A program made the position numbers and the translations under genes. Of a stretch of DNA of 37,821 bases, positions 17,783 to 37,820 are shown piece by piece. Origin of the DNA: Ruminococcus sp. (lineage in GTDB: Bacteria > Bacillota > Clostridia > Oscillospirales > Ruminococcaceae); NCBI GenBank assembly GCA_017461395.1, contig JAFTYF010000052.1:1-37821 (forward strand), in the 5' to 3' direction. How positions within the stretch are numbered: the stretch's first letter is position 1; each line of letters starts with the position of its first letter. Under the pieces are notes generated by a model, which ran no database searches, was not told where the DNA came from, and saw only the letters and a list, made by a program, of their open reading frames with translations.

Positions 17783-17818
17783 TGTGTGTAATCCCTCCAA
17801 TAAAAATTTTGCAATTTT

Positions 17819-17847
17819 ATTATAGCATGGTAGTCCGCTAAAGTCAA
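17819..17847 (-). promoter_or_regulatory. Promoter of the GH10 xylanase gene
   Basis: Read on the minus strand: TTGACT (17842-17847), 17-bp spacer, TATAAT (17819-17824), giving a leader of about 30 nt. Confidence 0.75.
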
Positions 17848-18113
17848 CGGAACACAAAAAACTTCACAATAAATGAAAAAAATATTCATTTTTGGTCAGT
17901 CAACACGTTTTTCAACAGTCTGTTGAATTCTGAGTTTAAACAATGATGTTAACATCCACATTGTTGAAAATGTGGAAAACTCTGTTGAATGACGATACTT
18001 AGCCACAAGAATTTAACAATGCTTCATGGAAAAGTTTTTTCATGCAGATTCGCCGTATATTTTCCTGATTCTTTTTATACCGACTGTTTACAACTTGTCC
18101 ATATTCAGGCATA
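17848..18113. promoter_or_regulatory. Non-coding xylanase upstream region with TGTTGA repeats
   Basis: No gene is seen. TGTTGA occurs at 17921-17926, 17962-17967 and 17983-17988, the first facing an inverted TCAACA (17912-17917). GATGTTAACATC (17945-17956) is a perfect 12-bp palindrome and CCACAT/ATGTGG brackets the middle copy. All lie upstream of the xylanase -35, where activator sites would be expected. Confidence 0.4.
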
Positions 18114-18147
18114 AAAAAACCGTACATCCGAAGATGTACGGTCATTT
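18114..18147 (-). terminator. Terminator of the 856-aa GH9 gene
   Basis: Read on the minus strand: CCGTACATC, 4-nt loop (TTCG), GATGTACGG, then TTTTTTT. Very strong; 16 nt past the stop. Confidence 0.93.
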
Positions 18148-18155
18148 TTATTGAA

Positions 18156-20726
18156 TTATTGATATTCCGGCAAGCTTGATGTCAGTCTAAGAATGTATCT
18201 CTGAATTGAGAGTGCATCCTTGTTTGTTACACCGTCACCAGGGTTGCATACGTCAGCGTTTGCTGCGCCCTGAGCTGTAAGCTTATACTGATCGGGATTT
18301 CCGAGATACTGGAGAACGAGAATAGCGTCGTTCAGGAGAACCTGACCATCGCAGTTAACGTCACCAGGTGTAGTAGGCTTAACTGAGGGGTTGGGAGCTG
18401 TAGTAGTTCTTGTAGTTGTTGTTCTTGTTGTAGTTTTTCTTGTTGTTGTAGTTGTTGTATTAGCCTTGTCGAAGTGGAGAACAACCTTGTCGATTGTAAC
18501 GCCATTATCGTGCGGCCACCAGATCATAGCCTTGATTGTTGAACCAGCGTCAGAAGGAATATCGTAGGAAACCTCAACCTTACCGTTCTTTACGTTAACC
18601 TTGAAGTCTTCCTGAACCCATTCGCCGTTCCATGTACCGAAACCGCCTGAGCTTTCTGTGTCATTAGTATTTACTGTGTAGTAAAGTGTGCATGACTTAG
18701 CGCCCTGATGAGCGAATTCAGCGTAGTTGTTTGTCTCGCCGTCGTCGCCGATTTCTGTATCAACTACCATGTCAGAAGGTGTAAGAACAACGTCATTTCC
18801 GCCTGAAGAAGGAGTATTAACTGTTGTAGTTCTTGTTGTTGTAGCTCTTGTTGTTGTTCTTCTTGTAGTTGTTACGTTAACTGAAGGTGTATTTCCGCTG
18901 CTGAGAACAACCTTGTCGATTGTAACAGCGTTGCCGTGAGGCCAGAATACCATAGCCTTTACTGTAGAGCCGACATTTGAAGGAATGTCATAGGAAACCT
19001 CAACCTTACCGTTCTTTACGTTAACCTTGAAGTCTTCCTGAACCCATTCGCCGTTCCATGTACCGAATGCGCCTGAGCTTTCAGTATCTGTTGAATTTAC
19101 TGTGTAGTAAAGTGTTGCCTTCTTAGCATTTCCGGGAGCAAATTCAGCGTAGTTGTTGATTTCGCCGTCGTCGCCGATTTCTGTATCAACTACCATGTCA
19201 GAAGGTAAGAGAACTGTATCTCCGCCTGTTGAAGGATTAGCAGTTGTTGTTGTAATTACAGAAGGATTCTTCTTAGAAGTTGTTGTTGTTACGCCGGGAC
19301 CAGGAGTAACTGAACCGCTGTAGATCTTGTTAACGCCTTCGATAGAAGAAACTGTTTTGCCTGTGCCATAAACTGAGTAGAGACCTGCTGCAGCACCTAC
19401 GAGACCTGCATTGTAGTCAACAGCAACCTCGTTGCACATATAATCGTCGATAACGTCGCTGTACTGACCAGCCTTGTTAGGACCGCCTGTAAGAGCACCG
19501 ATAAGAGTTTTGCCAGCTGTAGGGTGGTAAGACTTTACGCCCTCATAGAATGCATATTCACCTGTATAACCCTGATAGCCTGAAGCTGCTCTGTGGTGAG
19601 TATTCTTTGCAGAATTTGATGCAAAACCTGTTACGAAGCAAACATTAAACGGGTTTTCTCCGAGGATGTAGTTCATCTGACCTTTACACCAGTTAGTGTA
19701 GTCTGCATTTGAGTGCTTGCTTGCGATAAGAGCAGTCATCTGCATTGAGCAGTTAAGTCTTGCGCTTCCCCAGTCATCGAGACAACGATATCCGCTGCCT
19801 GTTGCATTTCCGGCGAGGTAGTTATTTACATTACCCCAGTTGCCTGTGATCTCAGCGTAGAGACAAGCTGCACCGAGAGTAGAGTTTTCCCAGCCATGAA
19901 CCCAACCGGGCTTCTGCTGCTTGCTTGCGCAGTCGTTCTTGTACTTTTCATTGTTTGTAGCAAGATAGAGCCAGCCTGCTGCCCAAGCCTGTTCATCCTG
20001 ACAGCTGCTGTTCCTGTAGAATGTCTGACCGCCTTCCATAGGACCGTCAGTAGCTATTGAGTTGTTCTGTGTTGAGAAGTTGTAAAGTGCCTCAGCATAC
20101 TTAAGGTCTTCTGCGTTGCCGAAGTTTACATAGTTTGCAGCGAGAGCAGCAGCGTACTGAGCTGCGATATCGCTTGCGCTGTTTGAAGTCCAGTACATTC
20201 TTCTTGAACCGCTCTGATTTTCAGGAGAGCCCCAGTACTTGTGGTCTTCAACGCCGCTTCCCTTCTGGTAAAGGAAGTTGGAAACGCTGTTGCCGCTGAG
20301 CTTTGTAGACCTCTTAAAGAAGTCACAGAAGTAGTCAGTGATTGCCTTAAGGTGTTCACCCTGACCTGTTGCGTCGTAAGCGTCCTTGAATTCATAGTAG
20401 CTCCAGCCAAGAGTTGAAGCTGCAAAGCCCTGAGGAAGACCGAACATAACGTGGTCGCCTGCGTCGTGGAAACCGCCGACAACCTCATCGGAGGTATGAC
20501 AGTTGCCTCTCCATGACATAGCAGATGTTCCTTTTACTTCGCCGCACATATTTGCGTCGTAAAAATAGAGTGAATACTGGAGGAGTTTTGCATAATCGTC
20601 TGTAACTGCTGCATTGGCGGTAAGAGAGGGTTTTGCCACATTTGAGGAAAATGGTGCAGCGAGTGCAGATACAGCAACAGCTCCGCCCAGAACTAATGAC
20701 TTGATTCTGTTCATAGTTTTGTGCAT
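18156..20726 (-). CDS. Cellulosomal GH9 glucanase with two tandem accessory modules and dockerin
   Basis: An 856-aa secreted enzyme. Signal peptide about 1-40. GH9 domain about 41-455: nucleophile-activating Asp pair in GFHDAGDHVMFG (Asp88, Asp91), His pair in NTHHRAASG (375-383), acid Glu433 in CNEVAVDYNAG. There is no N-terminal Ig or CBM4 module and no CBM3c after the barrel, so it is not a classic theme-B or theme-D GH9. Thr-rich linkers separate two near-identical 105-aa modules (503-608, 645-752), probably carbohydrate-binding, family not assigned. Dockerin 787-848 (NCDGQVLLNDA, DVCNPGDGVTNKDA). It likely cuts beta-1,4-glucan. ATG 20726 is taken because the signal peptide begins there; the ribosome site (AGAAGTG) is weak. 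ATG 20714 is an alternative. Confidence 0.94.
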   Translation of the reverse strand: MHKTMNRIKSLVLGGAVAVSALAAPFSSNVAKPSLTANAAVTDDYAKLLQYSLYFYDANMCGEVKGTSAMSWRGNCHTSDEVVGGFHDAGDHVMFGLPQGFAASTLGWSYYEFKDAYDATGQGEHLKAITDYFCDFFKRSTKLSGNSVSNFLYQKGSGVEDHKYWGSPENQSGSRRMYWTSNSASDIAAQYAAALAANYVNFGNAEDLKYAEALYNFSTQNNSIATDGPMEGGQTFYRNSSCQDEQAWAAGWLYLATNNEKYKNDCASKQQKPGWVHGWENSTLGAACLYAEITGNWGNVNNYLAGNATGSGYRCLDDWGSARLNCSMQMTALIASKHSNADYTNWCKGQMNYILGENPFNVCFVTGFASNSAKNTHHRAASGYQGYTGEYAFYEGVKSYHPTAGKTLIGALTGGPNKAGQYSDVIDDYMCNEVAVDYNAGLVGAAAGLYSVYGTGKTVSSIEGVNKIYSGSVTPGPGVTTTTSKKNPSVITTTTANPSTGGDTVLLPSDMVVDTEIGDDGEINNYAEFAPGNAKKATLYYTVNSTDTESSGAFGTWNGEWVQEDFKVNVKNGKVEVSYDIPSNVGSTVKAMVFWPHGNAVTIDKVVLSSGNTPSVNVTTTRRTTTRATTTRTTTVNTPSSGGNDVVLTPSDMVVDTEIGDDGETNNYAEFAHQGAKSCTLYYTVNTNDTESSGGFGTWNGEWVQEDFKVNVKNGKVEVSYDIPSDAGSTIKAMIWWPHDNGVTIDKVVLHFDKANTTTTTTRKTTTRTTTTRTTTAPNPSVKPTTPGDVNCDGQVLLNDAILVLQYLGNPDQYKLTAQGAANADVCNPGDGVTNKDALSIQRYILRLTSSLPEYQ
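18477..18794 (-). repeat. Second copy of tandem module in the GH9 gene
   Basis: Codes residues about 645-752. It is paired with the copy at 18897-19216. The segment coding GTWNGEWVQEDFKVNV and the following NGKVEVSYDIP is almost identical at DNA level between copies (about 18550-18645 against about 18980-19075). Confidence 0.85.
18897..19216 (-). repeat. First copy of tandem module in the GH9 gene
   Basis: Codes residues about 503-608. Protein differences from the other copy are few (for example VFWPHGNA against IWWPHDNG). Bordered by Thr-rich linkers coded by low-complexity GTT/GTA-type DNA on the plus strand. Confidence 0.85.
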
Positions 20727-20783
20727 ATTATCACACTTCTTTCTTAAAATATTGAAGGTTTGCCTATAATATGTCGCACTTAT

Positions 20784-20870
20784 ATTATACAATGTTTTTC
20801 CAGATACTTCTTTACAATTTGGTAACAAAACTATTACAATGTAGTTAAATTTAATGGTTTTGTAACAAAA
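20784..20870 (-). promoter_or_regulatory. Promoter and candidate operators of the 856-aa GH9 gene
   Basis: TATAAT on the minus strand at 20784-20789, without a consensus -35 at the expected place. Just upstream lies TTTGGTAACAAA (20818-20829; inverted repeat TTTG-N4-CAAA), and a second, TTTTGTAACAAAA (20858-20870), about 40 bp away, near four helical turns. A poor -35 with upstream sites suits activation, or the sites could bind a repressor. The rest of the 20727-20946 gap holds no gene. Confidence 0.5.
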
Positions 20871-20940
20871 TCATCACATCATGTCAAAAAACACTTGATA
20901 CTTAATTCAGATTTTGACTTTCAGCATCAGCGGTTCCGCA

Positions 20941-20969
20941 AAAAAACGGACGGCTCAGAGGCCGTCCGC
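20941..20969 (-). terminator. Terminator of the 699-aa GH9 gene
   Basis: Read on the minus strand: CGGACGGC, short loop, GCCGTCCG, then TTTTTTT. It starts 12 nt after the stop at 20982. Confidence 0.9.
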
Positions 20970-20981
20970 AGTTTGTTTTAT

Positions 20982-23081
20982 TTACTTTGCATTAGGATTC
21001 AGCGAACCCAAGAGGCTAAGCAGATAGCTCTGAATCTGGAGAGAATCCTGATTTGTGATACCGCTGCCGTTTTCGTATACGTCAGCATTCTTCATACCCT
21101 CATCAGTGATATGATTTGCATCATTGCCGGTTACGCCGAATGCATCGGGATTTCCGATAACCTGCATAACAAGAATAGCGTCATTAAGAAGAACCTGTCC
21201 GTCGCAGTTAGCGTCGCCCCAGATACGCTCCTCAGCCTGAGCCTTTTCAAGCTCAATGTTGATATTTGTTACAGAAGGATTTAAAAGATCAAATCCAATT
21301 TCCCATGTAGTCTGACTGCTTGTATAGCCGTCTGGCATAGATTTCAGAGTAAGTGTATATTTGTCTTGTGACTGAAGTTCCCACGCACCGTCAGTAACCT
21401 GAATTGTCTTGGGATTTTCGTCAGAAGTGTTCCATGTTACAGCATCGCCATAGCTCTTGTGACGTTCCATTTCAAGCTCTGCACCCGAAAGGAGTTCGCC
21501 TGTTTCCTTATCAGTAACCTTTACTTCAACCTTATACTGAATAGGATCAACAACAACCGGCGGCTCATCGGAACCGAACTTGAAGCTGTCGTTGATTTCA
21601 GCAGCACTTGCTTCGATTGCGCTGAATGTAGAGGGATCGCCGCCAAAGAGAGTTGCTGCATAAGCACAAGCTATTGCGAAGCATCCGTTGTAGTCGAGAG
21701 CGCCCTCAGTGTACTGATATCTGTCAGCGTGATCTTCATAGCCGCTTCCGTCGATACCGCCAACGAGCATACCGTAGTTGGTGTACTTGGCAGAGGGATT
21801 CTGTGCGGAAGTTACGCCGTCGCCGCCGGGATTAGCCGCACGGTGGTGGATATGAACAGGCCACTTGTCGCCGTATCCGAGAAGGAAGCTGTAGCCGAGA
21901 TTATTGTTTCCGAGGATGAAATCAAGCTGCCATTTTGCGCCCTGTGCATATTCGGAATTAGGATCTCCGTCAGCGATTGTATAAGCGTCCATCTGGAGTG
22001 CGCAGTTGATTCTTGAAGTTCCCCAGCCGTTAGTATTGTAGGTGCCGACTTTAAGACCATTCTGTCCCTGAAGCTCAACGATAAGCTCATCCTTGAAAGC
22101 CTTGTCGCCGGTAGCCTTGTACATCAGAGCCGCATAACCCTGCCATACCTTATCCCATGAGTAAACCCAGCCGTCATACTGATTTCCGCCGTAGTCCTTG
22201 TTGTTTGGAACTCTTGAAGGCTTGCTGCCCTCGCCGATTATCCAGAGCCATGCCTGAGCAACGGCTTCTTCGTCCTGATACTGAGCATCTGTGCCGTAGA
22301 AATTACTTATACCGCCTGTATTGTTTCCGACGTGCTTTGTACCGAATTCAAGCAGAGCCTTTGCATATTTAGCACATTCTGCGGAATATGTCGGATCGGA
22401 ATCCTTGAAAACGTAAGCCGCAGCAGCAAGACCAGCTGCCATTTCACAGCTTACAGCCGAGTTATTATCGGAAGGAGTAAGCCAGAAGATAGGACGGTCG
22501 TAAGTCTGAACCTCCGGAGGAGTCCAGAAGGAGTGGTCAGTTCCGCCGTCAGCAACGGTATGAGCAACAGCCGCAACCTGTCCCGAGCTGTCGAGGAAGG
22601 TAGTTTTCATGAGGTAATCAGCGCCCCATCTCATTTCATATTCAAAATGATCACGGCAGTTTGCTTTTTCGTATACGCCGGGATTGAAGTATTCAGACAT
22701 ACCGAGACTCGAAAGAGCGAATCCGATAGTGAGATTGAATTTGATGTGGTCGCCGGCATCGTGCCAGCCGCCGGAAACATCAACCTTACCATCGCCGTCG
22801 GGATCTACAACAGACTTCGCAGATCCGCCGAGACTTCCTACAGAAGCCTGTGCGTCGTAGGTGTGGCAGTCACCTCTCCATGTGAGAGGACCGTCAGTTA
22901 TACCCGTACCGCAGGCATTGGAATCGAAAAAGTAGAGGGACATTGCCAGTGCTTCGTAGTAATTGTTTTCCTCTGCTGCCGAAGCGATCGTTCCCGCACC
23001 TGTAAAAGGTATGGATGATGCTGCGATAACAGTTCCCATAAGACCGGCAAGAGTCTTTTTCAGCTTAGAAAAATGTGCCAT
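20982..23081 (-). CDS. Cellulosomal GH9 glucanase with Cna-B-like module and dockerin
   Basis: A 699-aa secreted enzyme. Signal peptide about 1-36 (cut near ASAA-E). GH9 barrel about 40-495: Asp pair in GGWHDAGDHIKFN (Asp108, Asp111), HIHHRAANPGG (410-420), acid Glu459 in YQYTEGALDYNG. The DPDGDGKVDVSGG loop (93-105) looks like a calcium-binding insert just before the catalytic Asp. Residues about 513-613 (YKVEVKVTDKETGELLSGAELEME...) fit a Cna-B/SpaA-like prealbumin fold, not a known CBM. Dockerin 620-692 with NCDGQVLLNDA and DVYENGSGITNQDS. ATG 23081 follows GAAAGGAG; the frame stays open for 50 codons upstream through the structured leader, with no ribosome site there. Confidence 0.94.
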   Translation of the reverse strand: MAHFSKLKKTLAGLMGTVIAASSIPFTGAGTIASAAEENNYYEALAMSLYFFDSNACGTGITDGPLTWRGDCHTYDAQASVGSLGGSAKSVVDPDGDGKVDVSGGWHDAGDHIKFNLTIGFALSSLGMSEYFNPGVYEKANCRDHFEYEMRWGADYLMKTTFLDSSGQVAAVAHTVADGGTDHSFWTPPEVQTYDRPIFWLTPSDNNSAVSCEMAAGLAAAAYVFKDSDPTYSAECAKYAKALLEFGTKHVGNNTGGISNFYGTDAQYQDEEAVAQAWLWIIGEGSKPSRVPNNKDYGGNQYDGWVYSWDKVWQGYAALMYKATGDKAFKDELIVELQGQNGLKVGTYNTNGWGTSRINCALQMDAYTIADGDPNSEYAQGAKWQLDFILGNNNLGYSFLLGYGDKWPVHIHHRAANPGGDGVTSAQNPSAKYTNYGMLVGGIDGSGYEDHADRYQYTEGALDYNGCFAIACAYAATLFGGDPSTFSAIEASAAEINDSFKFGSDEPPVVVDPIQYKVEVKVTDKETGELLSGAELEMERHKSYGDAVTWNTSDENPKTIQVTDGAWELQSQDKYTLTLKSMPDGYTSSQTTWEIGFDLLNPSVTNINIELEKAQAEERIWGDANCDGQVLLNDAILVMQVIGNPDAFGVTGNDANHITDEGMKNADVYENGSGITNQDSLQIQSYLLSLLGSLNPNAK

Positions 23082-23298
23082 AGAAATTACTCCTTTCAGA
23101 TTATAAACGTGAGAGGTTGATTTTTTACGAGGTTGTTGAAAAAATATACAAACAACCATTGGCAGGATTCCAAAGGGGGTGAATTTCAAAACAGTCCGGT
23201 GAACTGTTTTGAAAGAGGGGACGCCTTGCAAGTGAAGGCGTTCCCTTAAAAATATCTTGCTTGTATTTTTTCAACATACTGTTTTTACATAATATTCT
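23082..23298 (-). promoter_or_regulatory. Long structured 5' leader of the 699-aa GH9 gene
   Basis: About 217 nt. Two strong hairpins: 23184-23214 (TTTCAAAACAGT/ACTGTTTTGAAA, 12 bp perfect) and 23217-23245 (10 of 11 pairs, AAGGCGT core). TGTTGAAAAAATA (23134-23146, plus-strand reading) and TATTTTTTCAACA (23264-23276) can form a 13-bp closing stem around both. The downstream arm can instead form a local GGTTGTT/AACAACC hairpin (23131-23157). These two pairings exclude each other, as in a switch. No known riboswitch class is recognised. Confidence 0.55.
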
Positions 23299-26609: not shown

Positions 26610-26638
26610 TTGACATTTGTCACCAAATAATGTATAAT
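26610..26638 (+). promoter_or_regulatory. Promoter with candidate operator for the giant-protein operon
   Basis: TTGACA (26610-26615), 17-bp spacer, TATAAT (26633-26638). The spacer contains TTTGTCACCAAA (26616-26627), a TTTG-N4-CAAA inverted repeat also present at both GH9 promoters. A protein bound here would cover the promoter, so repression is expected. Confidence 0.7.
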
Positions 26639-26762: not shown

Positions 26763-26798
26763 ATGAAAATATTCCAGAAAAAGGAGGGGCTGACATGA
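26763..26798 (+). CDS. Possible 11-codon leader peptide
   Basis: ATG 26763 has a good ribosome site (AAAGGAGAGATAAT) and codes MKIFQKKEGLT before TGA at 26796-26798. The stop overlaps the ATG of the next gene (26795). Its own AAAAAGGAGGGG codons form the ribosome site of that gene. It may couple translation to the main gene, or be incidental. Too short to judge by codon use. Confidence 0.35.
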   Translation: MKIFQKKEGLT

Positions 26799-27733
26799 AG
26801 AAATTCCGTTCAAACAGACTTTCTGCTGTTCTTGCGGCAGCTTCCGTATGCAGCGGCGTAACTGCGGCTGTCCTGCTCAGACCGCTCAATTCGTCCGGTA
26901 TCAGCATCAGCAACGACTTCCTTGTGCTTCAGGTTCAGGATGATTCCTCTGAAACAGGATACGGCTCATATCAGCTTTTCAAGAATACCGGAAACTCTCA
27001 GGAGGCTCTTACCTACGCTCAGTTCTACACTTCATTTGCGCAGATCAGCGTGAACGGCAGCGTATGTTCTTTCGGCGAGGGAAAAACTCTCAAGGAGCTT
27101 TACTCCGACGACAAAAAAAGCGTTGTAACTGTCAAGGACTTCAGCGGCGTTGAGATCACTCAGACGCTCTCGTTCTCAACAGGAAATACTTCCAACAACG
27201 ATATGCTTAAAATAGAATACTCAGCTGTCAACAAGAACGACGACAGTGCTGTTGTATCAGTAAGAGCTGTTATTGATCCGACTATCGCTGATTCCGAAAC
27301 TGACAGCATTATCGTCGATAAGGCTGAATATACAAGCGAAACAGGCTTCGGCGGAAATGATATTCCTGCTGACTGGTATGTCAGAGACAAAAACGGCAAG
27401 GCTGTGGCATACGGAATTGTTTCTGACAGCGGCTCAAAGCCGGATTACTTTGACATCGCAGACTGGGAAAATCTCTGGAACGACCGTTTTGATTACTCCC
27501 CTGCTGAGACAATATCCGATAATGCCGCCGCTGTAACATGGTCAGACCGTACGCTAAAAAGCGGTGAAACGCTCGTGTGCTCTACAAAATACGGTCTCTA
27601 CAGCGAGAAGCCCAGCAGCGGAAATCCCCCTAAAACAGGCGATACCGCCGGATATGTATTCGCCGGAATCGGACTCTGCTCCATGACGGCGGCTATCCTT
27701 ACAAGAAAGAGGAGGTCGGATGAAAATGAATAA
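26795..27733 (+). CDS. Sortase-type cell-wall-anchored surface protein, partner of the giant protein
   Basis: A 312-aa protein of no family I recognise. N-terminus: MKKFRSNRLS plus a hydrophobic stretch to about residue 28, a signal peptide. Residues about 35-265 look like an all-beta domain (alternating strands; VTVKDFSGVEITQTLSFSTG). C-terminus: NPPKTGD (277-283), a hydrophobic helix (YVFAGIGLCSMTAAIL) and RKRRSDENE, the layout of an LPXTG-like sorting signal with variant NPPKTG. It should be exported and joined to the wall by a sortase; no sortase gene is in the window. Its stop overlaps the giant-protein gene by 14 bp, so both are made together and probably act together. AAAGGAGGGG precedes ATG 26795. 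Confidence 0.8.
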   Translation: MKKFRSNRLSAVLAAASVCSGVTAAVLLRPLNSSGISISNDFLVLQVQDDSSETGYGSYQLFKNTGNSQEALTYAQFYTSFAQISVNGSVCSFGEGKTLKELYSDDKKSVVTVKDFSGVEITQTLSFSTGNTSNNDMLKIEYSAVNKNDDSAVVSVRAVIDPTIADSETDSIIVDKAEYTSETGFGGNDIPADWYVRDKNGKAVAYGIVSDSGSKPDYFDIADWENLWNDRFDYSPAETISDNAAAVTWSDRTLKSGETLVCSTKYGLYSEKPSSGNPPKTGDTAGYVFAGIGLCSMTAAILTRKRRSDENE

Positions 27734-30700
27734 CTTATTCAAAAAGCTCACTGCGTCTGCCCTTGCTCTTACAACAACGGCAGCCTATTTTCCGACTGCG
27801 GCGCTCGTTCAGGCATTCGCTGAAAACGAGGAGCGTATCCAGATCGACAACAGTCTTATTGCTCTTTACGCTAAGAATTCCATAAAGCTCAACGAAAAAA
27901 GCGTGAACGTAAACGGCGGTGTTTTCTCCGGCAAAGAACTTTCCTACACCGGCAGCAGTGATAAATTTTCCGTAAGCGGTCTGAATGGTTCGGCAAACGA
28001 CGGCATTGAGTGTCCGCTCCCCGACTACACAGACTTCATAAATTCCATTGAGGCTTACGATTTTACATACGATAAGGATACTGTTCTTTACGACTCAGTT
28101 CTTGATCTCACAGTAAATTCCGTTTATTCGGAGGGAAATCTCACCATTGATCACGCTGAACTCAAAGCGTCCGGCAGAATCTCAGCAAAAGGCGATATCA
28201 CCATGAGCATCGCCGAAAACGATGAGCTTCAGCAGACTTATATCATGTCCGAAAACGGCGATATCACCATTGATGCCGCAAATCTTGACTTCGCCGGAGT
28301 CATCTACGCTCCCAACGGCAAGGTCAGGATCAATGCAAAGGATATCAGTCTCATTGGTGCGATATATGCAGACAGCATCGAGATCAACGGAACATCCCTT
28401 ACAGTGGAATACAGAGATCTTTTCAAGCTTACCTGCTCCGCGCACACAACTGATACCGTATATATCAACAGAAACGAAAGCATAACTCTCAGCGGTTCTG
28501 TTTCAAACAACAGCGCAGAGATCAGCTACAAGCTTCCCGCTTCTCAGTCTGAATATGCTGAAATTTCCGGCGAAAATACTCTCAGTCCTGTTCTTTCATT
28601 CTCTGAGCCCGGCGAGTACAGCGTTACGCTTACAGCCTCCTCCGGAAACGAATTCGCAAGAGATACCGTAAAGATCATTGTTTCTTCCGGTCCTGTTGCG
28701 AATTACACAAGCACCGGTGACTTCAATGCCGGAACTCTGACATCCGCAGACGGCAGCAATGATGAGCTTAAGCTTGCCGCTGCAAAGAATGATTCCGCAC
28801 CGGCTCCCAAGACGTATTCTCTCGGCGGCGAAAGCGGTATCAGCGTAAAGTCTTCGCAAAGCAAAAACTCCATTGACTTCGGCGGAGACAAGCTTGATCT
28901 CGGCTTTGAGCTTGAAGGCTACGGTCAGCTTATCACCGGAAACGGCAACGATGTTATCATTGCTATCGACAATTCCGGAAGCGTTTCAAGCATGATCCCG
29001 ACTATCAAGGAAGCTGCTCTCCAGATCATTGAATCAATGGGCCCTAACGACCGTCTCGGAATAACCTCTCTCGGACGTCTCAATACTCCCCTTACTTCTG
29101 ACAAGGATGTTCTTATCGAGGCTTTCAATAAATATAATCTCGACGGAAGCAGCAATATCGGAAGCGGTCTCCAGATAGCCATGACGCAGATGTTCGACGA
29201 GGAAAGCGCAAACCGTGACAAGTTTATCTTCCTCCTCGCTGACGGCGAAAACGGCGTTAACAGCAGCGATGATACGATTGCTCTTGAAATGGCTGCAGCC
29301 GCAAAGGAAAACGGTACAAAAATATATTCCTTTGAGATAAATCCATTCTCCTCCAGTTTCAATGAAACACAGGTGATGCAGCAGGTCGCTATTGATACAA
29401 ACGGCGCATATAAGCTCTGTCCCAACGCAGAAGCTATCAGCAGATTCCTCCTCAATATGGCGGATAATATCTATAACCTCGCTGCAAGAAATGTCACATT
29501 CACCACAACCGTATTAAATGCTGACTGGATAAAAACAGGCTCTATGAAGAAGGCTCCCGACAGCATGGTGACAAATCCCGACGGCTCTGTTACTCTCAGC
29601 TGGAACTTCAACTCATTTGAGATCGGCGCTGCTGAAGATCTCGGAATAAGCCTTAATACCGGTCTTATCACCGATAAGGGATTCGTTCAGGTGACAAAGG
29701 ATACAAAGCTTATCTCATACAACAGAAACGGTGAGGGAAGCGTCCTTTACATCGACGATATTATCGTCGGAAACGACAACTTCGCCGACAACGGCAAGTG
29801 GATCAGCAATGTTTTCGACAGCGGCAGGGAAAACTGTCAGTGGACTTCCGTTAAGTGGAATGCCGATTATTACGGAAATTCTGCAATTGATGTCTACCTC
29901 AGCACAAGTGAAGACGGCGTGAACTTCTCCGACAGGATCAAGGTCACAAACAATCAGAAGGAACTCGTTCTCTCCGGCAGATACATCCGCGCAGAGGTCG
30001 AAATGAAGGCTTCTGACGACGGTTCATCTCCCGTGCTCTACGACCTTACCGTATACTCCGATACTCCTGATTCATCCGATCTCTCAGAGGGCGTGTCTGC
30101 TGCCATAAGAGGAGCACACAACGTCTCCGCAGAAGCACACGTTTCACTCTGGCTCGATATCAGCGGCAAATCCGACAGCGTATCCGATATAAAATGGGAT
30201 CTCGGCGGCGGTCAGGAGCTTGCTTCTGACGAAAATCCTCTCAGAAAAACTATCGTATTCCCCGAAAAGGGTGAATATACCGTAAAGGTATTTGTCACCT
30301 CCGGCGAAACAGTTACAGAAACAGCTGTTAATATCTCCGTTGCTTCAAAGGCTTCTCTTATCGAGGATTTTGAGGACGAGGAAGAAGAATTCAAGGCTGT
30401 TAAAATGGAAGTACCTGAGCTTCCTGAATATGTAACTGACTATAAAACTCCTCTTGAACTCAATATTTCCTTTGAGGATCCTGAGCAGGTTGCATGGGTA
30501 AGAGTACTCTACCATGATTCCAAGAACAATACTGCTCTCCAGCTTGCCTATGTTGACGAGGAAAATGATAACCACATAAGTGTTCCGATCTATTCCTCCA
30601 ACCTTTCCGTGACAGATATCACTATCGAAGCTTACGACTGGTACGGAAACAAAACTGCTGAAACAAGAAAAACAACTCTCGACAGAAAAACGCCGTACGT

Positions 30701-33700
30701 TACCCTGAACAGCAGAAGAAGCTGGGTATATCCGGATAATCCGATAACATTTACTGTTACATCTTCAGATGAGAACAAGCTCGAAAAAACAGCACTTTAC
30801 TGTAACGGCGAAGAAGTTGAACTCACTGCCGGCGAAGAAAACTGGACTTATATATTCAGCAGCAGAACTCCAGGCAAGTATGTATTCATGGCTGAGGCTA
30901 TCGACGTTGCCGGAAACCGTGTTGAAACATCAAAAACTGTAGAAGTCCGTGCCGATGAAGGACTTCCTGCTGCGTACATAAACTCAAACAGCAGCGTTAT
31001 CCTCGGCAACAAGCTTGATATCAAGACTACTGCCTACGATAACGAAACAAGTCTTGAAAAGCTTATACTTTCCGTCCAGAAGGAGGGTGAGGAAAACAGC
31101 ACTGTTATCTTTGATCTCGACAGCAGCAAGGATACCATTGAAAAGGAAAATACCTATACCTTCATCCCCGACAGCACAGGCACATATATCTTTACTGTAA
31201 CTGCCACTGACCGTGAAGGAAATACAGCTTCTGCTTCAAGAAAGGTGACCTGCCGTCCTGATACAAGCGGACCGAGCATTAGTCTGAAGCTCAGCAAATC
31301 TGAGATACTTGCCGGAGACTTCACTGACCTGACAGCTGTTATTACTGATGATGTTGCTGTCAAGGATGTAAAGTTCTTTGTTGACGATCAGGAGGCTCAG
31401 CTCACTGAGGAGGGAACCTTCCATTACATCTCCGACGGAAGCAATGTTGACAGCAACGGTATAAAATACGTTGCATTCAAGGTTACAGCAGTTGATACTG
31501 CCGGAAATGAAAGATCAAACAGCATACGTCTTAAGGTTATTACTGAGGATAAGACTAATCCGAATGTTTCCATAAGCGTTTCAAACAGATATGAATATCT
31601 CAACGCAAACGCATACATGACTGTAAGTGCTTCCGATAATATCGGCGTTGAATCGCTTGTTGTCACTGTAAACGGCGAAGCTGTTACATTAGACGAAAAC
31701 GGAAGATATTACTTCGATACCTCAAAAATCACTGAATATACTGTTATTGCATCAGCTAAGGACGCCGCCGGAAATGAAAGATCAGCAGAAAGAACTGTCG
31801 TTATCTCAGATACTACAAGACCTGCTGTTAAATTCACTCCCGACAAGAACAGCTATAATCAGGGCGAAAGTCCTGTTATCTCCGTTGATGTTACCGACAA
31901 CTACGAATTGAAAACCGTAACTGCCGACCTCGACGGAACTCCTGTTGAAACACAGAACGGAAGCTTCACTTGTACGATAAGCGAAGCTCCTGCCGGACAG
32001 TATGTTCTCACCGTTCACGCTGAGGATATCTTCGGAAACGTTACCGATCAGAAATATACCGTTAAGGTAAGAGATACCGAAGCTCCTGTCATCTCCGTGA
32101 CAGCTGATAAGGAAACTTACGCAAAGAGCGAAATTCCTGATGTTTCATGCGAATACTCCGACAATGTGGGCGTAACAAAGGTTACTGCAAATATCGACGG
32201 AACTGCTCTTACTTTCGACATGGAAACAAATAAGGTCGTTATTCCGGAGGCTCTTGAAGCAGGAGACCACACTATCACCGTTACTGCCCGCGACGCAGCC
32301 GGAAATACTTCCGAAGCCGCAAGCGTAAGCTTCTTTGTTTCATCCTCCGATGACATTATAAGTCCCGTTATTGAAAAGGTTAATGTAATTCCGGAAATTA
32401 TCCGCGTCGGTGATGAGGTAACACTTGCTGTAACTGCATCCGACGACAGCGGAAAAGTAAAGCTTACTGTTACAGTAAACGATACTCCCGTTGAAGAATC
32501 AGCCGCAGCCGGAGAATTTGTATTTACTCCCGATGCAGTAGGCGAACTTAAAATCACTATCAGAGCTGAGGACGAATCCGGCAACTATACACAGCAGGAG
32601 GGTACTCTCAACGTCTTCAGAAATACCGAAAATCACAAGCTTGTGGTTGAAGCTCCGGCTGTTGTAAAGCCCGGCGAAGCTATTACTGCTCTTATCTCTG
32701 TCAAGGATGAAATTCCTTTTGATACTGTTGAACTCTGGCTCGGCGAACAGAATATGTCATCGCTTCTTACTTCCGCCGGAGATGCAAAATATCAGGCGCA
32801 GTTCTCATTCGACGAGACAGGCGACTACACATTAAAGGCAGTCGGAAAGGACAGCGACGGCTATCAGACTGAAACTTTCTTCACTGTTCAGGTTTCAGGA
32901 ACATATGAAACTGAACTTGAATCAGAAGAAATGCAGGCGGCTCTCGCTCAGACATCAGAAACCCGCCTCAACGACGAACTCAAGAAGCTTGCAGCTTCCT
33001 TTGAATCACCTGCCGAGGCTTACGACTACGTTTACAACAACATCGACTTTGAAGCATACACCAACTCAAGAAGAGGTGCTGCTGCAACCTATGAGCTGAA
33101 AAAGGGCAACGACTTCGATCAGGCAAGCCTCCTTATAGGTCTGCTGAGAGAAATGGGCTATCCGGCAAGATACGCTCAGGGAAATGTTATCCTCACCGCT
33201 GAGCAGACAAGAAGCCTTATGGCTATGGAAGACTTTGAATATGCCGCAAATATGCTCGCAAGCTCCGGAAAAAATGCAGCTCTTGTTACGGCGGCTGACG
33301 GAAGCAAGCTCGTTAATATCGAAGAAGCGTTCGTTCAGGTATATGTTCCGGCAAGCGAGATCGGCGAAACTGACGAAATTCTCAAGGATCTCGGCGTATG
33401 GGTAAATCTTGATACATCTATCAAGCCGTCAGAAGCCTGCGGAATCGAGGTTACACCGTCTGAGCAGAAAACTCTTAACATCAACGAATATAAAGAACAG
33501 ATCGCAGGTACGCCATACGAAGCACTTCTCACTGAATTTGAAGCTATGGCTCCGCAGATTACAGAAGCTACAGGAAGCACCGCTATTGAAGAAGCCTTCA
33601 GCGGAACTGTAGGCTATACAAGCGAAGCCGATAATTCCTACGGCAGACAGATCATTACAAAGAATTTCACAAGACTTCCGTCATCGCTCCAGTATACACT

Positions 33701-35444
33701 TGCATCCGATTCGCTCACTGCCTTCAACGAGGTGCCGATAGACAAGGCTGACAACGTTCAGTTTGTTGTACAGCAGGGACTTGGCAGAAAACATCTCGGT
33801 ACATACAAGATCAGCGATATCTACAACAAGAGAGTCACACTCCAGTTCAAGGGAAATACAGGCGGCGGAACTATCTTTGAAATGGGTAAGAATGCGATCT
33901 ACAACAATGCATTCCTCCCTGCAATGTATGTTGACGGCGAACTCACTGGTGAATACAGCTACGATGAGTACAGTGATGACCTTGATGAATACATGATTGA
34001 TCCCGATACTGAATACTATTTCTTAAAGAACAGCTCATGGCGTCTCGGTGAAAAGTGCAAGGTAACTTCGGCTATCTACACCAACGGCAGAACGTCACAG
34101 TGGACTGACGAGGTCGTTATCGGAAGCACATATGCTATGGTATTTGATACCGGCGGAATCACTGAAAGTCAGTATTATGGCGCTCTCAACTCTGCCGCTG
34201 AAAACAACGGCATTGATATGAGCGATCCTGCAAACCCTGTTCCGGCTTCTGATCCGGAAAAAACCGTTAACAATACAAACTACTACGACGAAGCAAAAAT
34301 CGGTTCTTATCTTGACTTTGCCGGAAAATATTACTTCCTCTACTGTGATTTCTACGGCAATCTCAACGCAAGCCGCAAGGATATTGAAGTAGGTCATGAT
34401 ACAAAGATGCTTATGACAAGCTACAGCGTCCGCAGCTACGAGGACGGCTATAACGGATATGCTACAACGGATATCATTCCCGGAAGATTCCAGATTGACG
34501 TATCCTACAACAACGGCTATACATTCAGCAGAATCGGCGACGATGAAGCAAGAAACGAGTATATGTTCAGCACAGCGTACATGGAATCCTACTACGAGGG
34601 CTGGCTCTGGCGCAATCTCCTCAATATCGAAGGAGCTTCAACTGGCTCTATCTTAGATAAGGCTCTGTCTGAGGGCGCAGAAATGCTCTGTATCAACGGC
34701 GCAAACATCGAAGAAATGCTCGCAAAGGCTGATCTTACCGCAGATGAAACAACTGAAATCAGAACCGCAGTTGAAAACGGACTCTCAGTTATCGTTCCCG
34801 ATAAGCGTGTTGCTATCAATGAATGGAGCGGTACGGGCTATATCGTCGGTGATTTTGTGGACTACAACAGCTTCACATTCAAGATTTCCGGCGGAATGAA
34901 CGGCGGTTCGGCTACAGAAGATATAGACCTCAGCCACTACACTATCAATACTGAGCAGGCGTTTACAACTTCATTTGCAGTTGTTCAGTCTCTGTTCTAC
35001 TTCATGCTGGAATACTCTGTAATGTCAGAAGTTATGCCGGCTGTAGGAGCTCTCTCCGCTGCAAGCGGATGCGGTCCGGCTGCTGTATTCATTGGCGGTA
35101 TGGCTCTTTACGACGCTGCAAAACACCTTTCTGATATTCTCGGCTATCGTGCAACAATGCTTGATCTTCTCTACAATTACTGCACAAGTGACAGCAATCA
35201 GGAAGAAATTGAAGCAACTGTCGGCATGATAGAGCTTATGGTCACTATGATAAAGGACCTCGTTTCATCACTTAATCCGTTCAAGGAGGAATCTGATACA
35301 CCTATCCTCGACGGACTTAAAACACTCACTCAGGACCTTTTCGATATATGTGCCGGAGATGAATTTGATGATGATACAAAGGATACTGTTCACGATCTGA
35401 CAGACGAAATCTGGGATATCGTCGGAGAAGATCTGGATAAATAA
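27720..35444 (+). CDS. Giant secreted mosaic protein: VWA, Ig-like repeats, degenerate transglutaminase domain
   Basis: A 2574-aa exported protein. Signal peptide 1-34 (cut near AFA-E). About 150-235: strand-turn repeats with GVIYAPNGKVRIN, as in beta-helical surface proteins. About 240-330: PKD/Ig-like. About 412-590: von Willebrand A domain, MIDAS DNSGS (Asp417, Ser419, Ser421) and LLADGENG (Asp508). About 674-780: beta-sandwich. About 890-1728: at least eight Ig/cadherin-like repeats of about 90 aa, most ending in A-x-D-x-x-GN. About 1745-1905: transglutaminase-like fold, but Cys-His-Asp is replaced by Asp1798, Glu1869, Asp1898. About 1906-2400: unassigned, beta-rich. About 2414-2470: hydrophobic helices; acidic helical end. 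No sorting signal, dockerin or cohesin. GGAGG fits ATG 27720 or 27726. Confidence 0.85.
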   Translation: MKMNNLFKKLTASALALTTTAAYFPTAALVQAFAENEERIQIDNSLIALYAKNSIKLNEKSVNVNGGVFSGKELSYTGSSDKFSVSGLNGSANDGIECPLPDYTDFINSIEAYDFTYDKDTVLYDSVLDLTVNSVYSEGNLTIDHAELKASGRISAKGDITMSIAENDELQQTYIMSENGDITIDAANLDFAGVIYAPNGKVRINAKDISLIGAIYADSIEINGTSLTVEYRDLFKLTCSAHTTDTVYINRNESITLSGSVSNNSAEISYKLPASQSEYAEISGENTLSPVLSFSEPGEYSVTLTASSGNEFARDTVKIIVSSGPVANYTSTGDFNAGTLTSADGSNDELKLAAAKNDSAPAPKTYSLGGESGISVKSSQSKNSIDFGGDKLDLGFELEGYGQLITGNGNDVIIAIDNSGSVSSMIPTIKEAALQIIESMGPNDRLGITSLGRLNTPLTSDKDVLIEAFNKYNLDGSSNIGSGLQIAMTQMFDEESANRDKFIFLLADGENGVNSSDDTIALEMAAAAKENGTKIYSFEINPFSSSFNETQVMQQVAIDTNGAYKLCPNAEAISRFLLNMADNIYNLAARNVTFTTTVLNADWIKTGSMKKAPDSMVTNPDGSVTLSWNFNSFEIGAAEDLGISLNTGLITDKGFVQVTKDTKLISYNRNGEGSVLYIDDIIVGNDNFADNGKWISNVFDSGRENCQWTSVKWNADYYGNSAIDVYLSTSEDGVNFSDRIKVTNNQKELVLSGRYIRAEVEMKASDDGSSPVLYDLTVYSDTPDSSDLSEGVSAAIRGAHNVSAEAHVSLWLDISGKSDSVSDIKWDLGGGQELASDENPLRKTIVFPEKGEYTVKVFVTSGETVTETAVNISVASKASLIEDFEDEEEEFKAVKMEVPELPEYVTDYKTPLELNISFEDPEQVAWVRVLYHDSKNNTALQLAYVDEENDNHISVPIYSSNLSVTDITIEAYDWYGNKTAETRKTTLDRKTPYVTLNSRRSWVYPDNPITFTVTSSDENKLEKTALYCNGEEVELTAGEENWTYIFSSRTPGKYVFMAEAIDVAGNRVETSKTVEVRADEGLPAAYINSNSSVILGNKLDIKTTAYDNETSLEKLILSVQKEGEENSTVIFDLDSSKDTIEKENTYTFIPDSTGTYIFTVTATDREGNTASASRKVTCRPDTSGPSISLKLSKSEILAGDFTDLTAVITDDVAVKDVKFFVDDQEAQLTEEGTFHYISDGSNVDSNGIKYVAFKVTAVDTAGNERSNSIRLKVITEDKTNPNVSISVSNRYEYLNANAYMTVSASDNIGVESLVVTVNGEAVTLDENGRYYFDTSKITEYTVIASAKDAAGNERSAERTVVISDTTRPAVKFTPDKNSYNQGESPVISVDVTDNYELKTVTADLDGTPVETQNGSFTCTISEAPAGQYVLTVHAEDIFGNVTDQKYTVKVRDTEAPVISVTADKETYAKSEIPDVSCEYSDNVGVTKVTANIDGTALTFDMETNKVVIPEALEAGDHTITVTARDAAGNTSEAASVSFFVSSSDDIISPVIEKVNVIPEIIRVGDEVTLAVTASDDSGKVKLTVTVNDTPVEESAAAGEFVFTPDAVGELKITIRAEDESGNYTQQEGTLNVFRNTENHKLVVEAPAVVKPGEAITALISVKDEIPFDTVELWLGEQNMSSLLTSAGDAKYQAQFSFDETGDYTLKAVGKDSDGYQTETFFTVQVSGTYETELESEEMQAALAQTSETRLNDELKKLAASFESPAEAYDYVYNNIDFEAYTNSRRGAAATYELKKGNDFDQASLLIGLLREMGYPARYAQGNVILTAEQTRSLMAMEDFEYAANMLASSGKNAALVTAADGSKLVNIEEAFVQVYVPASEIGETDEILKDLGVWVNLDTSIKPSEACGIEVTPSEQKTLNINEYKEQIAGTPYEALLTEFEAMAPQITEATGSTAIEEAFSGTVGYTSEADNSYGRQIITKNFTRLPSSLQYTLASDSLTAFNEVPIDKADNVQFVVQQGLGRKHLGTYKISDIYNKRVTLQFKGNTGGGTIFEMGKNAIYNNAFLPAMYVDGELTGEYSYDEYSDDLDEYMIDPDTEYYFLKNSSWRLGEKCKVTSAIYTNGRTSQWTDEVVIGSTYAMVFDTGGITESQYYGALNSAAENNGIDMSDPANPVPASDPEKTVNNTNYYDEAKIGSYLDFAGKYYFLYCDFYGNLNASRKDIEVGHDTKMLMTSYSVRSYEDGYNGYATTDIIPGRFQIDVSYNNGYTFSRIGDDEARNEYMFSTAYMESYYEGWLWRNLLNIEGASTGSILDKALSEGAEMLCINGANIEEMLAKADLTADETTEIRTAVENGLSVIVPDKRVAINEWSGTGYIVGDFVDYNSFTFKISGGMNGGSATEDIDLSHYTINTEQAFTTSFAVVQSLFYFMLEYSVMSEVMPAVGALSAASGCGPAAVFIGGMALYDAAKHLSDILGYRATMLDLLYNYCTSDSNQEEIEATVGMIELMVTMIKDLVSSLNPFKEESDTPILDGLKTLTQDLFDICAGDEFDDDTKDTVHDLTDEIWDIVGEDLDK
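30390..32905 (+). repeat. Tandem Ig/cadherin-like repeats within the giant gene
   Basis: Roughly nine protein repeats of about 90 aa. Repeat ends are seen as AYDWYGN, AIDVAGN, ATDREGN, AVDTAGN, AKDAAGN, AEDIFGN, ARDAAGN and AEDESGN, with a divergent ninth (AVGKDSDGY). DNA identity between repeats is low, so the expansion is old, unlike the GH9 modules. Confidence 0.8.
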
Positions 35445-35666: not shown

Positions 35667-37292
<1,626 letters not shown>

Positions 37293-37760: not shown

Positions 37761-37820
37761 TCAGCTGATATCCATATCAATATCTTCTGTATCGGCTTTC
37801 ATTTCTTCAAGCCTTTCCGA
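37761..37820 (-). CDS. C-terminal end of an element-borne gene (runs off window)
   Basis: The last 19 codons of a minus-strand frame (SERLEEMKADTEDIDMDIS, then TGA at 37761-37763) enter from the right edge. Acidic, helical. It ends 54 nt before the small 32-aa frame and is probably part of the same mobile element. Identity cannot be judged. Confidence 0.4.
   Translation of the reverse strand, partial: SERLEEMKADTEDIDMDIS

What the first reader, a model, noticed from the sequence alone, without database searches (positions are those of the whole stretch)
26763..35444. Unfamiliar two-gene surface system: wall-anchored small partner plus giant VWA/Ig/pseudo-transglutaminase protein
A 312-aa protein with an NPPKTG sorting signal and a 2574-aa secreted protein with no anchor are coded with a 14-bp overlap, from a dedicated promoter. 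The giant combines a beta-helix-like region, a VWA domain with its metal site, at least eight Ig/cadherin-like repeats, a substituted transglutaminase fold and about 670 aa I cannot assign. The simplest model is that the small protein holds the giant on the wall, making a long adhesive or fibre-binding appendage (inference). I know of no described system with this pair.
Basis: partly seen in the sequence, partly recalled or inferred. Interest (0 to 1): 0.8.

Follow-up and report, generated by a model that had tools for sequence, protein, structure and literature searches.

The report
Wall-tethered toxin-chassis surface protein pair
Two overlapping genes of a plant-fibre-degrading gut bacterium make a small wall-anchored protein and a giant secreted protein whose front half is shared with known antibacterial "polymorphic toxins", so this looks like a surface-displayed toxin chassis, here without a recognisable toxin, rather than an unfamiliar adhesin.

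Summary
A 312-aa protein with a sortase-type signal and a giant protein are encoded with a short overlap behind a consensus promoter. The pair is real: in 125 genomes of the genus, the small protein and the giant's full head occur in the same 18 genomes, adjacent in all 18, with a 19th pair in another family. The giant is not of unknown kind. Its first ~1,630 residues (52-55% identical) are joined in a sister genome (G105) to RHS repeats, a HINT pretoxin domain, an Ntox47 toxin and an overlapping immunity-like ORF. In the window this rear half is a catalytically substituted transglutaminase module. Elsewhere that module precedes a colicin-type DNase with a SUKH immunity gene, or carries tips with orphan cassettes that begin at an ISGG junction. 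Inactive transglutaminases in polymorphic toxins are published (PMC3482391); my searches found no description of the small partner. Best reading: a polymorphic-toxin chassis held on the wall in trans by the small protein. In this clade no toxin domain or immunity gene is recognisable, so killing is unproven.

The parts
26610..26638 (+). Promoter, TTGACA-17 bp-TATAAT
   Evidence: perfect here; 0-2 mismatches in 12 of 12 close pairs (window included)
26763..26798 (+). 11-codon leader ORF with its own Shine-Dalgarno; its stop overlaps the start of the small gene
   Evidence: such a leader in 10 of 12 close pairs (window included), 0 of 7 distant ones; 13 of 214 control ORF starts
26795..27733 (+). 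Small partner, 312 aa: signal-peptide-like start (by eye), one conserved domain, C-terminal sorting signal
27626..27640 (+). PPKTG sorting motif of the small partner
   Evidence: xPKTG in 12 of 12 close (window included) and 2 of 6 distant homologues
27720..35444 (+). Giant protein, 2574 aa as annotated, 2572 aa if it starts at 27726; no anchor of its own found
27825..28709 (+). gN head domain (contains the DUF7305 match), co-occurs with the small partner
28935..29489 (+). VWA domain with DxSxS metal-site motif
30360..32939 (+). Bacterial Ig-type repeat region; about eight repeats by eye
   Evidence: Big_13 6 stretches, Big_7 5
32955..34910 (+). TG-C module: inactive transglutaminase plus about 440 aa, ending at the ISGG junction
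34884..34910 (+). ISGGMNGGS junction; in G694 and G719 orphan tip cassettes start at this motif
34911..35441 (+). Tip, 177 aa: weakly hydrophobic stretch plus fast-changing acidic tail; no known toxin domain and no overlapping immunity ORF

Best explanation
The pair is a two-gene, wall-displayed member of the polymorphic-toxin (RHS/WapA-like) surface proteins. Shown by sequence: the genes overlap and share one promoter; the small protein ends in a C-terminal anchor and none was found in the giant; the giant has a head (gN, VWA, Ig stalk) and a rear that differs between relatives, being either an RHS-HINT-toxin half or an inactive-transglutaminase module (TG-C) with a terminal tip. Inferred: both proteins leave by Sec (signal peptides by eye); sortase fixes the small protein to the wall or membrane; it holds the giant by the head, most likely gN, with which it co-occurs; the VWA/Ig stalk reaches out, and the rear is presented to a neighbouring cell or surface. 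In the window's clade the rear carries TG-C plus a short tip instead of a recognisable toxin and immunity pair, so the present role is more likely contact or binding by a toxin-derived scaffold than killing (my split: about 55 to 45).
For: The same 18 of 125 genus genomes hold the small protein (E<=8.6e-27) and full-length gN (E<=3.7e-99), adjacent in 18 of 18; a 19th pair lies in another family, G402. ATG overlap of 8 or 11 bp in 18 of 18 tested. Head shared with G105 (52% over the first 398 residues; 54.6% over 325-1633), whose rear is RHS x22, PT-HINT, Ntox47 plus an ORF overlapping by 14 bp. G105/G112 nest inside the TG-C clade in the small and gN trees, so the rear changed within the clade (some supports low). 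RHS also in G021 and G091 by Pfam and in G012, G034, G065, G085 by motif counts of 10-15 against 0 in the 11 TG-C giants. A second, Lectin_C-headed group shows both rears: G103 TG-C + Colicin-DNase + SUKH ORF, G077 RHS + HINT. TG-C trunks with tip cassettes in G694, G719, G632. Own genome has 6 sortase matches. Published inactive transglutaminases in polymorphic toxins (PMC3482391, passages).
Against: No structure or interface could be predicted. No toxin domain in the window giant (25 of 29 families shown), no RHS match in its 93%-complete genome, no ORF of 50 aa or more overlapping the 3' end in 11 of 11 TG-C giants with the small partner. 5 of 19 small partners lack xPKTG (G021, G034, G065, G091, G402). 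Four long gN giants lie in genomes without a small-protein match (G002, G063, G077, G103); three of them start with Lectin_C, G063 was not scanned. The small domain is common elsewhere in unrelated settings (98 of 378 phylum genomes, own included). Of the overlapping 'immunity' ORFs only G103's has a known immunity family; four have none at cut-off, and G021 has no such ORF. The distance correlation small-gN (r 0.93 over 66 close pairs) has no species-tree control.
Confidence: 0.62

Rival explanations
1. A plain adhesive or fibre-binding appendage: small anchor plus giant stalk binding plant cell wall or other cells, with no remaining link to toxin delivery.
For: The same window encodes two GH9 enzymes (one with a dockerin match just below cut-off) and a GH10; VWA and Ig repeats are common in adhesins (recalled); a small-type domain is fused to CBM_3 in G260 and G073; no toxin or overlapping immunity ORF in this clade.
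Against: No carbohydrate-binding domain match at cut-off in either protein; head and rear are both shared with polymorphic toxins; an RHS-toxin rear inside the same clade.
Confidence: 0.25
2. The 177-residue tip is an unrecognised membrane-active effector, so the window giant is a working toxin that needs no adjacent immunity gene.
For: In G103 and G694 the stretch behind the ISGG junction is hydrophobic and leads on to a DNase or HINT part; in G632 different tips follow the motif. The tail is incongruent: window vs G098 75-90% identical from gN to TG-C but 33% over the last 54 residues, window vs G018 66-83% but 74% there.
Against: No immunity-like ORF in 11 of 11; hydrophobic segments are weak; the incongruence is one case of 54 residues and could be fast drift.
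Confidence: 0.25
3. The small protein is an independent surface protein merely co-transcribed with the giant; the giant is released or held by another protein.
For: Outside the genus the small domain sits in other proteins: mostly open frames of about 640-760 aa, behind ExbB-, ExbD- and TonB-like genes in 3 of 8 loci fetched, and SLH-bearing proteins in 2 of 3 scanned.
Against: 18 of 18 adjacency and identical set of genomes in the genus; the pair is kept whether the rear is TG-C or RHS. In a second TG-C pair type the upstream partner carries the attachment signal in 10 of 12 (xPxTG), and one of the other two has a CttA_N match.
Confidence: 0.18

Closest known systems
RHS/WapA-type polymorphic toxins of Gram-positive bacteria (e.g. 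S. suis WapA, PMC12704120, passages read)
   Same: Very large exported wall-associated protein; relatives with the window's head carry RHS, HINT and a C-terminal toxin with a downstream immunity-like ORF
   Different: S. suis WapA is thought to be attached by its own LysM region and goes with SecF-like and SrtB genes; here the anchor is a separate small protein, and the window copy has no RHS and no recognised toxin
[quoted passage not shown]
   Same: Catalytic residues lost; sometimes next to bacterial Ig domains in large secreted proteins
   Different: [quoted passage not shown] here it lies behind the Ig stalk, near the C-terminus, with a tip directly behind it
Second anchored + TG-C pair in Ruminococcus
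   Same: Gene of a surface-attached protein directly in front of a TG-C gene
   Different: Upstream protein has 1,465-1,581 residues where complete and no detected similarity to the small protein; TG-C is a separate 940-1070-aa protein
Sortase-dependent pilus tip adhesins with VWA (recalled, no call)
   Same: VWA with metal site on the cell surface
   Different: The giant itself has no sorting signal found, and no sortase match lies on the window's contig

Membership tests
Polymorphic toxin systems | Constant N-terminal export/presentation part with exchangeable C-terminal part | tested here: met
   Head shared with G105, rear differs; met at family level
Polymorphic toxin systems | Recognisable toxin domain at the C-terminus of this copy | tested here: not met
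   Pfam and NCBIfam show none; relatives G105 and G103 have one
Polymorphic toxin systems | Immunity gene directly downstream of this copy | tested here: not met
   No overlapping ORF in the window and 10 other TG-C giants; overlapping ORFs in G105, G012, G065, G091 and G103, of which only G103's has a known immunity family
Polymorphic toxin systems | Orphan tip cassettes near the gene | tested here: inconclusive
   None seen in the 2,377 bases behind the giant, where the contig ends; present for TG-C trunks of G694, G719, G632 and the gN giant of G063
RHS proteins | RHS/YD repeats | tested here: not met
   0 in the giant and no match in the genome
Sortase-anchored surface proteins (small partner) | Motif, hydrophobic stretch and positive tail; sortase in genome | tested here: met
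   TIGR01167 over cut-off; PF00746 below cut-off; 6 sortase matches
Transglutaminase enzymes | Cys-His-Asp triad | tested here: not met
   Asp at Cys place in 20 of 20 rows; His place also changed in the window; positions assigned by motif
Fibre-binding proteins | Carbohydrate-binding domain or measured binding | tested here: not met
   No such domain at cut-off; binding itself not testable here
Small partner as anchor of the giant | Physical complex | not testable with these tools
   Structure prediction switched off

The most novel reading that the evidence does not exclude
Gut Ruminococcus and relatives use a trans-anchored contact toxin system: a small sortase-anchored docking protein, a common gN-VWA-Ig head, and plug-in rear ends (RHS cocoon or TG-C trunk) whose tips are exchanged at an ISGG junction; the window's tip is a new membrane-active effector class.
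Probability: 0.25. Interest if true: 0.8.

Novelty: new variant of a known kind. Interest (0 to 1): 0.58.

Why it matters
It places an apparently orphan giant adhesin in the polymorphic-toxin family and suggests that cellulolytic gut Firmicutes display such proteins by a separate anchor subunit, which is directly testable. It also describes, without RHS repeats, a toxin trunk (inactive transglutaminase module with an ISGG tip junction and orphan cassettes); beyond Transglut_core this module had no Pfam or NCBIfam match in the scans made here. The small domain turns out to be a widespread Firmicutes domain without a match at cut-off in those libraries, also found beside ExbB-ExbD-TonB genes.

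Tried and rejected
Rejected: active transglutaminase crosslinker (triad lost). Rejected: co-varying length of the two proteins as evidence (both nearly constant in the close TG-C group). Inconclusive: small-gN distance correlation, no species control. Not counted: my first VWA profile held five rows of the distant group (no VWA by Pfam in the two of them scanned, G021 and G091), so its hits in G012, G021, G034, G065, G085, G091 are no evidence; a profile from 11 rows replaced it. PDB sequence searches gave nothing for the small protein and, for TG-C, six weak hits, best E 0.0054 to a designed protein and 0.11 to a transglutaminase-like protein. The serine recombinase behind the giant was considered as a tip-switching enzyme: 2 of 22 compared loci have a match (L085 95.6% over 225 residues, L059 42%). 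One 15-nt inverted-repeat pair with one mismatch (34913-34927 and 37777-37791) has an arm just behind the ISGG junction and the other beyond the recombinase, but 7 of 60 shuffles hold at least one such pair, so it is only a passing note.

Dropped rows: G112's rear is unresolved (contig end), G034's 3' end is at a contig end, G087's giant is split over two contigs. G085's is broken by runs of N; an ORF of 258 aa overlaps the end of its last piece and was not counted. G124 and G073 (weak, partial small hits) were left out of the 18. Stand-alone TG-C genes: 13 fetched (11, G105 and G112); 12 have a large gene directly in front, G100 has none; further places were not fetched. One search showed 25 of the giant's 29 families.
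Full report
What is there. The window belongs to a draft genome (2.08 Mb, 80 contigs, 93% complete). Six named records with a relative of the small protein are MAGs, five titled Ruminococcus and one Clostridiales, three of them from sheep or goat gut. ORF calling gives the small gene at 26795-27733 and the giant at 27720-35444. The promoter, TTGACA-17-TATAAT at 26610-26638, is perfect; the best site has 0-2 mismatches in 12 of 12 close pairs, window included, and 3-4 in 5 distant ones. An 11-codon leader ORF with its own ribosome-binding site precedes the small gene; a similar leader is found in 10 of 12 close pairs, 0 of 7 distant ones and 13 of 214 control ORF starts. An ATG giving an 8-bp overlap with the small gene exists in 16 of 18 pairs tested, and an 11-bp one in the remaining two, so 27726 is the likelier start of the giant.

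Domains. The giant has DUF7305, PKD, VWA, many bacterial Ig-type matches and Transglut_core (which showed 25 of 29 families). The DxSxS motif lies at residue 417. The transglutaminase has Asp1798 where Cys is expected and Glu where His is expected (assigned by motif, not by structure); Asp holds the Cys place in 20 of 20 aligned rows. No RHS, toxin or anchor domain, and no carbohydrate-binding domain at cut-off, was found in it.

The pair is real. In 125 genomes of the genus, 20 match the small protein; two of these (G124, G073) are weak and partial. The giant's head domain gN is found at full length in 18 of 125 genomes and weakly in 23 more. The 18 are the same 18 that hold the small protein, and in all 18 the small gene directly precedes the giant (for the window, for the other 17). 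A 19th pair lies in another family of the order, G402. The ribosomal genes L13 and S9, next to the pair in the window, had no match in 22 compared loci of limited length.

What the giant is. The head is shared almost without interruption with the giant of G105 (52% identity over 398 residues; 54.6% over residues 325-1633). There the strong homology stops. G105 goes on with 22 RHS repeats, a PT-HINT domain and an Ntox47 toxin, and a 155-aa ORF overlaps its 3' end by 14 bp. Among the small-partner giants, the window, G098, G018, G106, G001, G075, G096, G024, G081, G087 (split over two contigs) and G402 have the TG-C module; G105, G021, G091 (Pfam) and G012, G034, G065, G085 (motif counts) have RHS repeats; G112 is unresolved. 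PT-HINT was also found in G091 and G065. In trees of the small protein and of gN, G105/G112 sit inside the TG-C clade, so the rear changed at least once there; some supports are modest.

A second group repeats the pattern. Giants headed by Lectin_C, with a partial gN match and in genomes without a small-protein match, end either in TG-C followed by Colicin-DNase/WHH with a SUKH-type ORF overlapping by 41 bp (G103), in RHS and PT-HINT (G077), or in TG-C without a known toxin (G002). G063, a gN giant without small partner and with 9 RHS-type motifs (not scanned with Pfam), is followed by three ORFs that repeat the same start as its C-terminal part.

The TG-C module. It ends in a conserved ISGG..GG motif. 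In G694 and G719, orphan ORFs begin at this motif and repeat the tip of the neighbouring TG-C protein (85.6% over 723 alignment columns and 99.2% over 254 in G694; 100% over 714 in G719), and the G694 tip contains PT-HINT. In G632, orphan pieces carry the end of TG-C, the motif and other tips. In G846 TG-C is followed by 13 RHS-type motifs. TG-C was found in 9 of 378 phylum genomes, own included. On plasmids, 7 records matched weakly and partially, and 5 of them are annotated as RHS proteins. Zhang et al. 2012 (PMC3482391; passages only) describe inactive transglutaminases in polymorphic toxins, always behind the signal peptide or a TM helix and before RHS repeats, with a suggested surface-anchoring role. 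The ISGG junction with tips directly behind TG-C goes beyond those passages; I did not read the whole paper.

The window's own tip. Behind the junction come 177 residues with a weakly hydrophobic stretch and an acidic tail. None of the 11 TG-C giants with the small partner has an ORF of 50 aa or more overlapping its 3' end, whereas 4 of 5 RHS giants with a resolved end do (G105, G012, G065, G091; not G021); G085 (N-broken), G034 and G112 (contig ends) are not counted. Four of those overlapping ORFs have no Pfam family at cut-off; only G103's is a known immunity family. Window and G098 are 75-90% identical from gN to the end of TG-C but 33% in the last 54 residues, while window and G018 are 66-83% and 74%: one incongruent case that hints at exchange.

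The small partner. xPKTG is present in 12 of 12 close (window included) and 2 of 6 distant homologues and absent in G402; the hydrophobic, positively charged C-terminus remains by eye. The own genome has 6 sortase matches. In a second pair type of the genus, a large protein (1,465-1,581 residues where complete) is encoded directly before a stand-alone TG-C gene: 12 of 13 fetched, 10 of the 12 ending in xPxTG. The other two end in dockerin-like sequence by eye, and one (G127) matches CttA_N, named for a cellulose-binding protein. That fits the upstream gene being the attachment part. The small domain itself is widespread: 98 of 378 phylum genomes, own included, mostly in open frames of about 640-760 aa; in 3 of 8 fetched loci (L192, L193, L196) the gene lies behind ExbB-, ExbD- and TonB-like genes (Pfam run on L192 and L196, L193 by similarity).

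Mechanism. Shown: co-encoded, anchor found on the small protein only, rear half differing between relatives with one head. Inferred: export by Sec; small protein binds gN and holds the giant on the wall; the stalk presents the rear. Unknown: what the rear does here. I put the non-killing, contact or binding role slightly ahead of an unrecognised effector.

Literature. Searches for polymorphic toxin with RHS and transglutaminase, RHS with sortase/LPXTG or wall-anchor terms, Ruminococcus with polymorphic toxin or rearrangement hotspot, Ruminococcus with RHS repeat and von Willebrand factor, R. flavefaciens with von Willebrand factor and transglutaminase, RHS/WapA with gut terms and inactive transglutaminase showed no description of this pair; only listings were seen except for PMC3482391 and PMC12704120 (passages). 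The library is partial, so absence in print is not proven.

Noticed in passing
L192:7670-12591, L193:8099-12742, L196:6825-11797: The small-protein domain is the N-terminal part of a Firmicutes protein (with CARDB- or NPCBM-associated- and cohesin-like parts) encoded behind ExbB-, ExbD- and TonB-like genes; the window's small protein itself has no Pfam or NCBIfam match except the anchor.
   Followed up: partly
L165, L166, L167: RHS-free toxin-like trunks with orphan tip cassettes; in L165 and L166 these begin at the ISGG motif.
   Followed up: partly
L087-L091, L093-L097, L067, L068: Second pair: a large sortase-signal (or, in two, dockerin-like) protein directly in front of a stand-alone 940-1070-aa TG-C gene; weak MG2 and WxLIP matches in the upstream protein.
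   Followed up: partly
window 35667-37292 (-): Large serine recombinase convergent with the giant's 3' end; a 95.6% identical piece lies in the G103 toxin locus (L085:19291-19965), which suggests a recently moved element.
   Followed up: partly
window 34913-34927 and 37777-37791: 15-nt inverted repeat with one mismatch, one arm just behind the ISGG junction, the other beyond the serine recombinase; 7 of 60 shuffles hold at least one such pair. If real, the tip could be invertible.
   Followed up: partly
window 26763-26798: Leader mini-ORF with its own ribosome site overlapping the small gene's start, also in 9 of the 11 other close pairs.
   Followed up: partly
L109, L076: Small-type domain fused to CBM_3 cellulose-binding domains, with a CARDB match below cut-off.
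   Followed up: no
L110-L117: In other Oscillospirales-order genomes the small-type domain lies in 2.0-2.9 thousand-residue proteins, with SLH domains in 2 of 3 scanned (G179, G437; not G187); 6 of 8 loci have another ORF of over 2,300 aa next to it.
   Followed up: no
window 15845-23231 (-): GH10 with CBM_4_9 and two GH9 enzymes, one with a dockerin match just below cut-off: the host looks cellulolytic.
   Followed up: no
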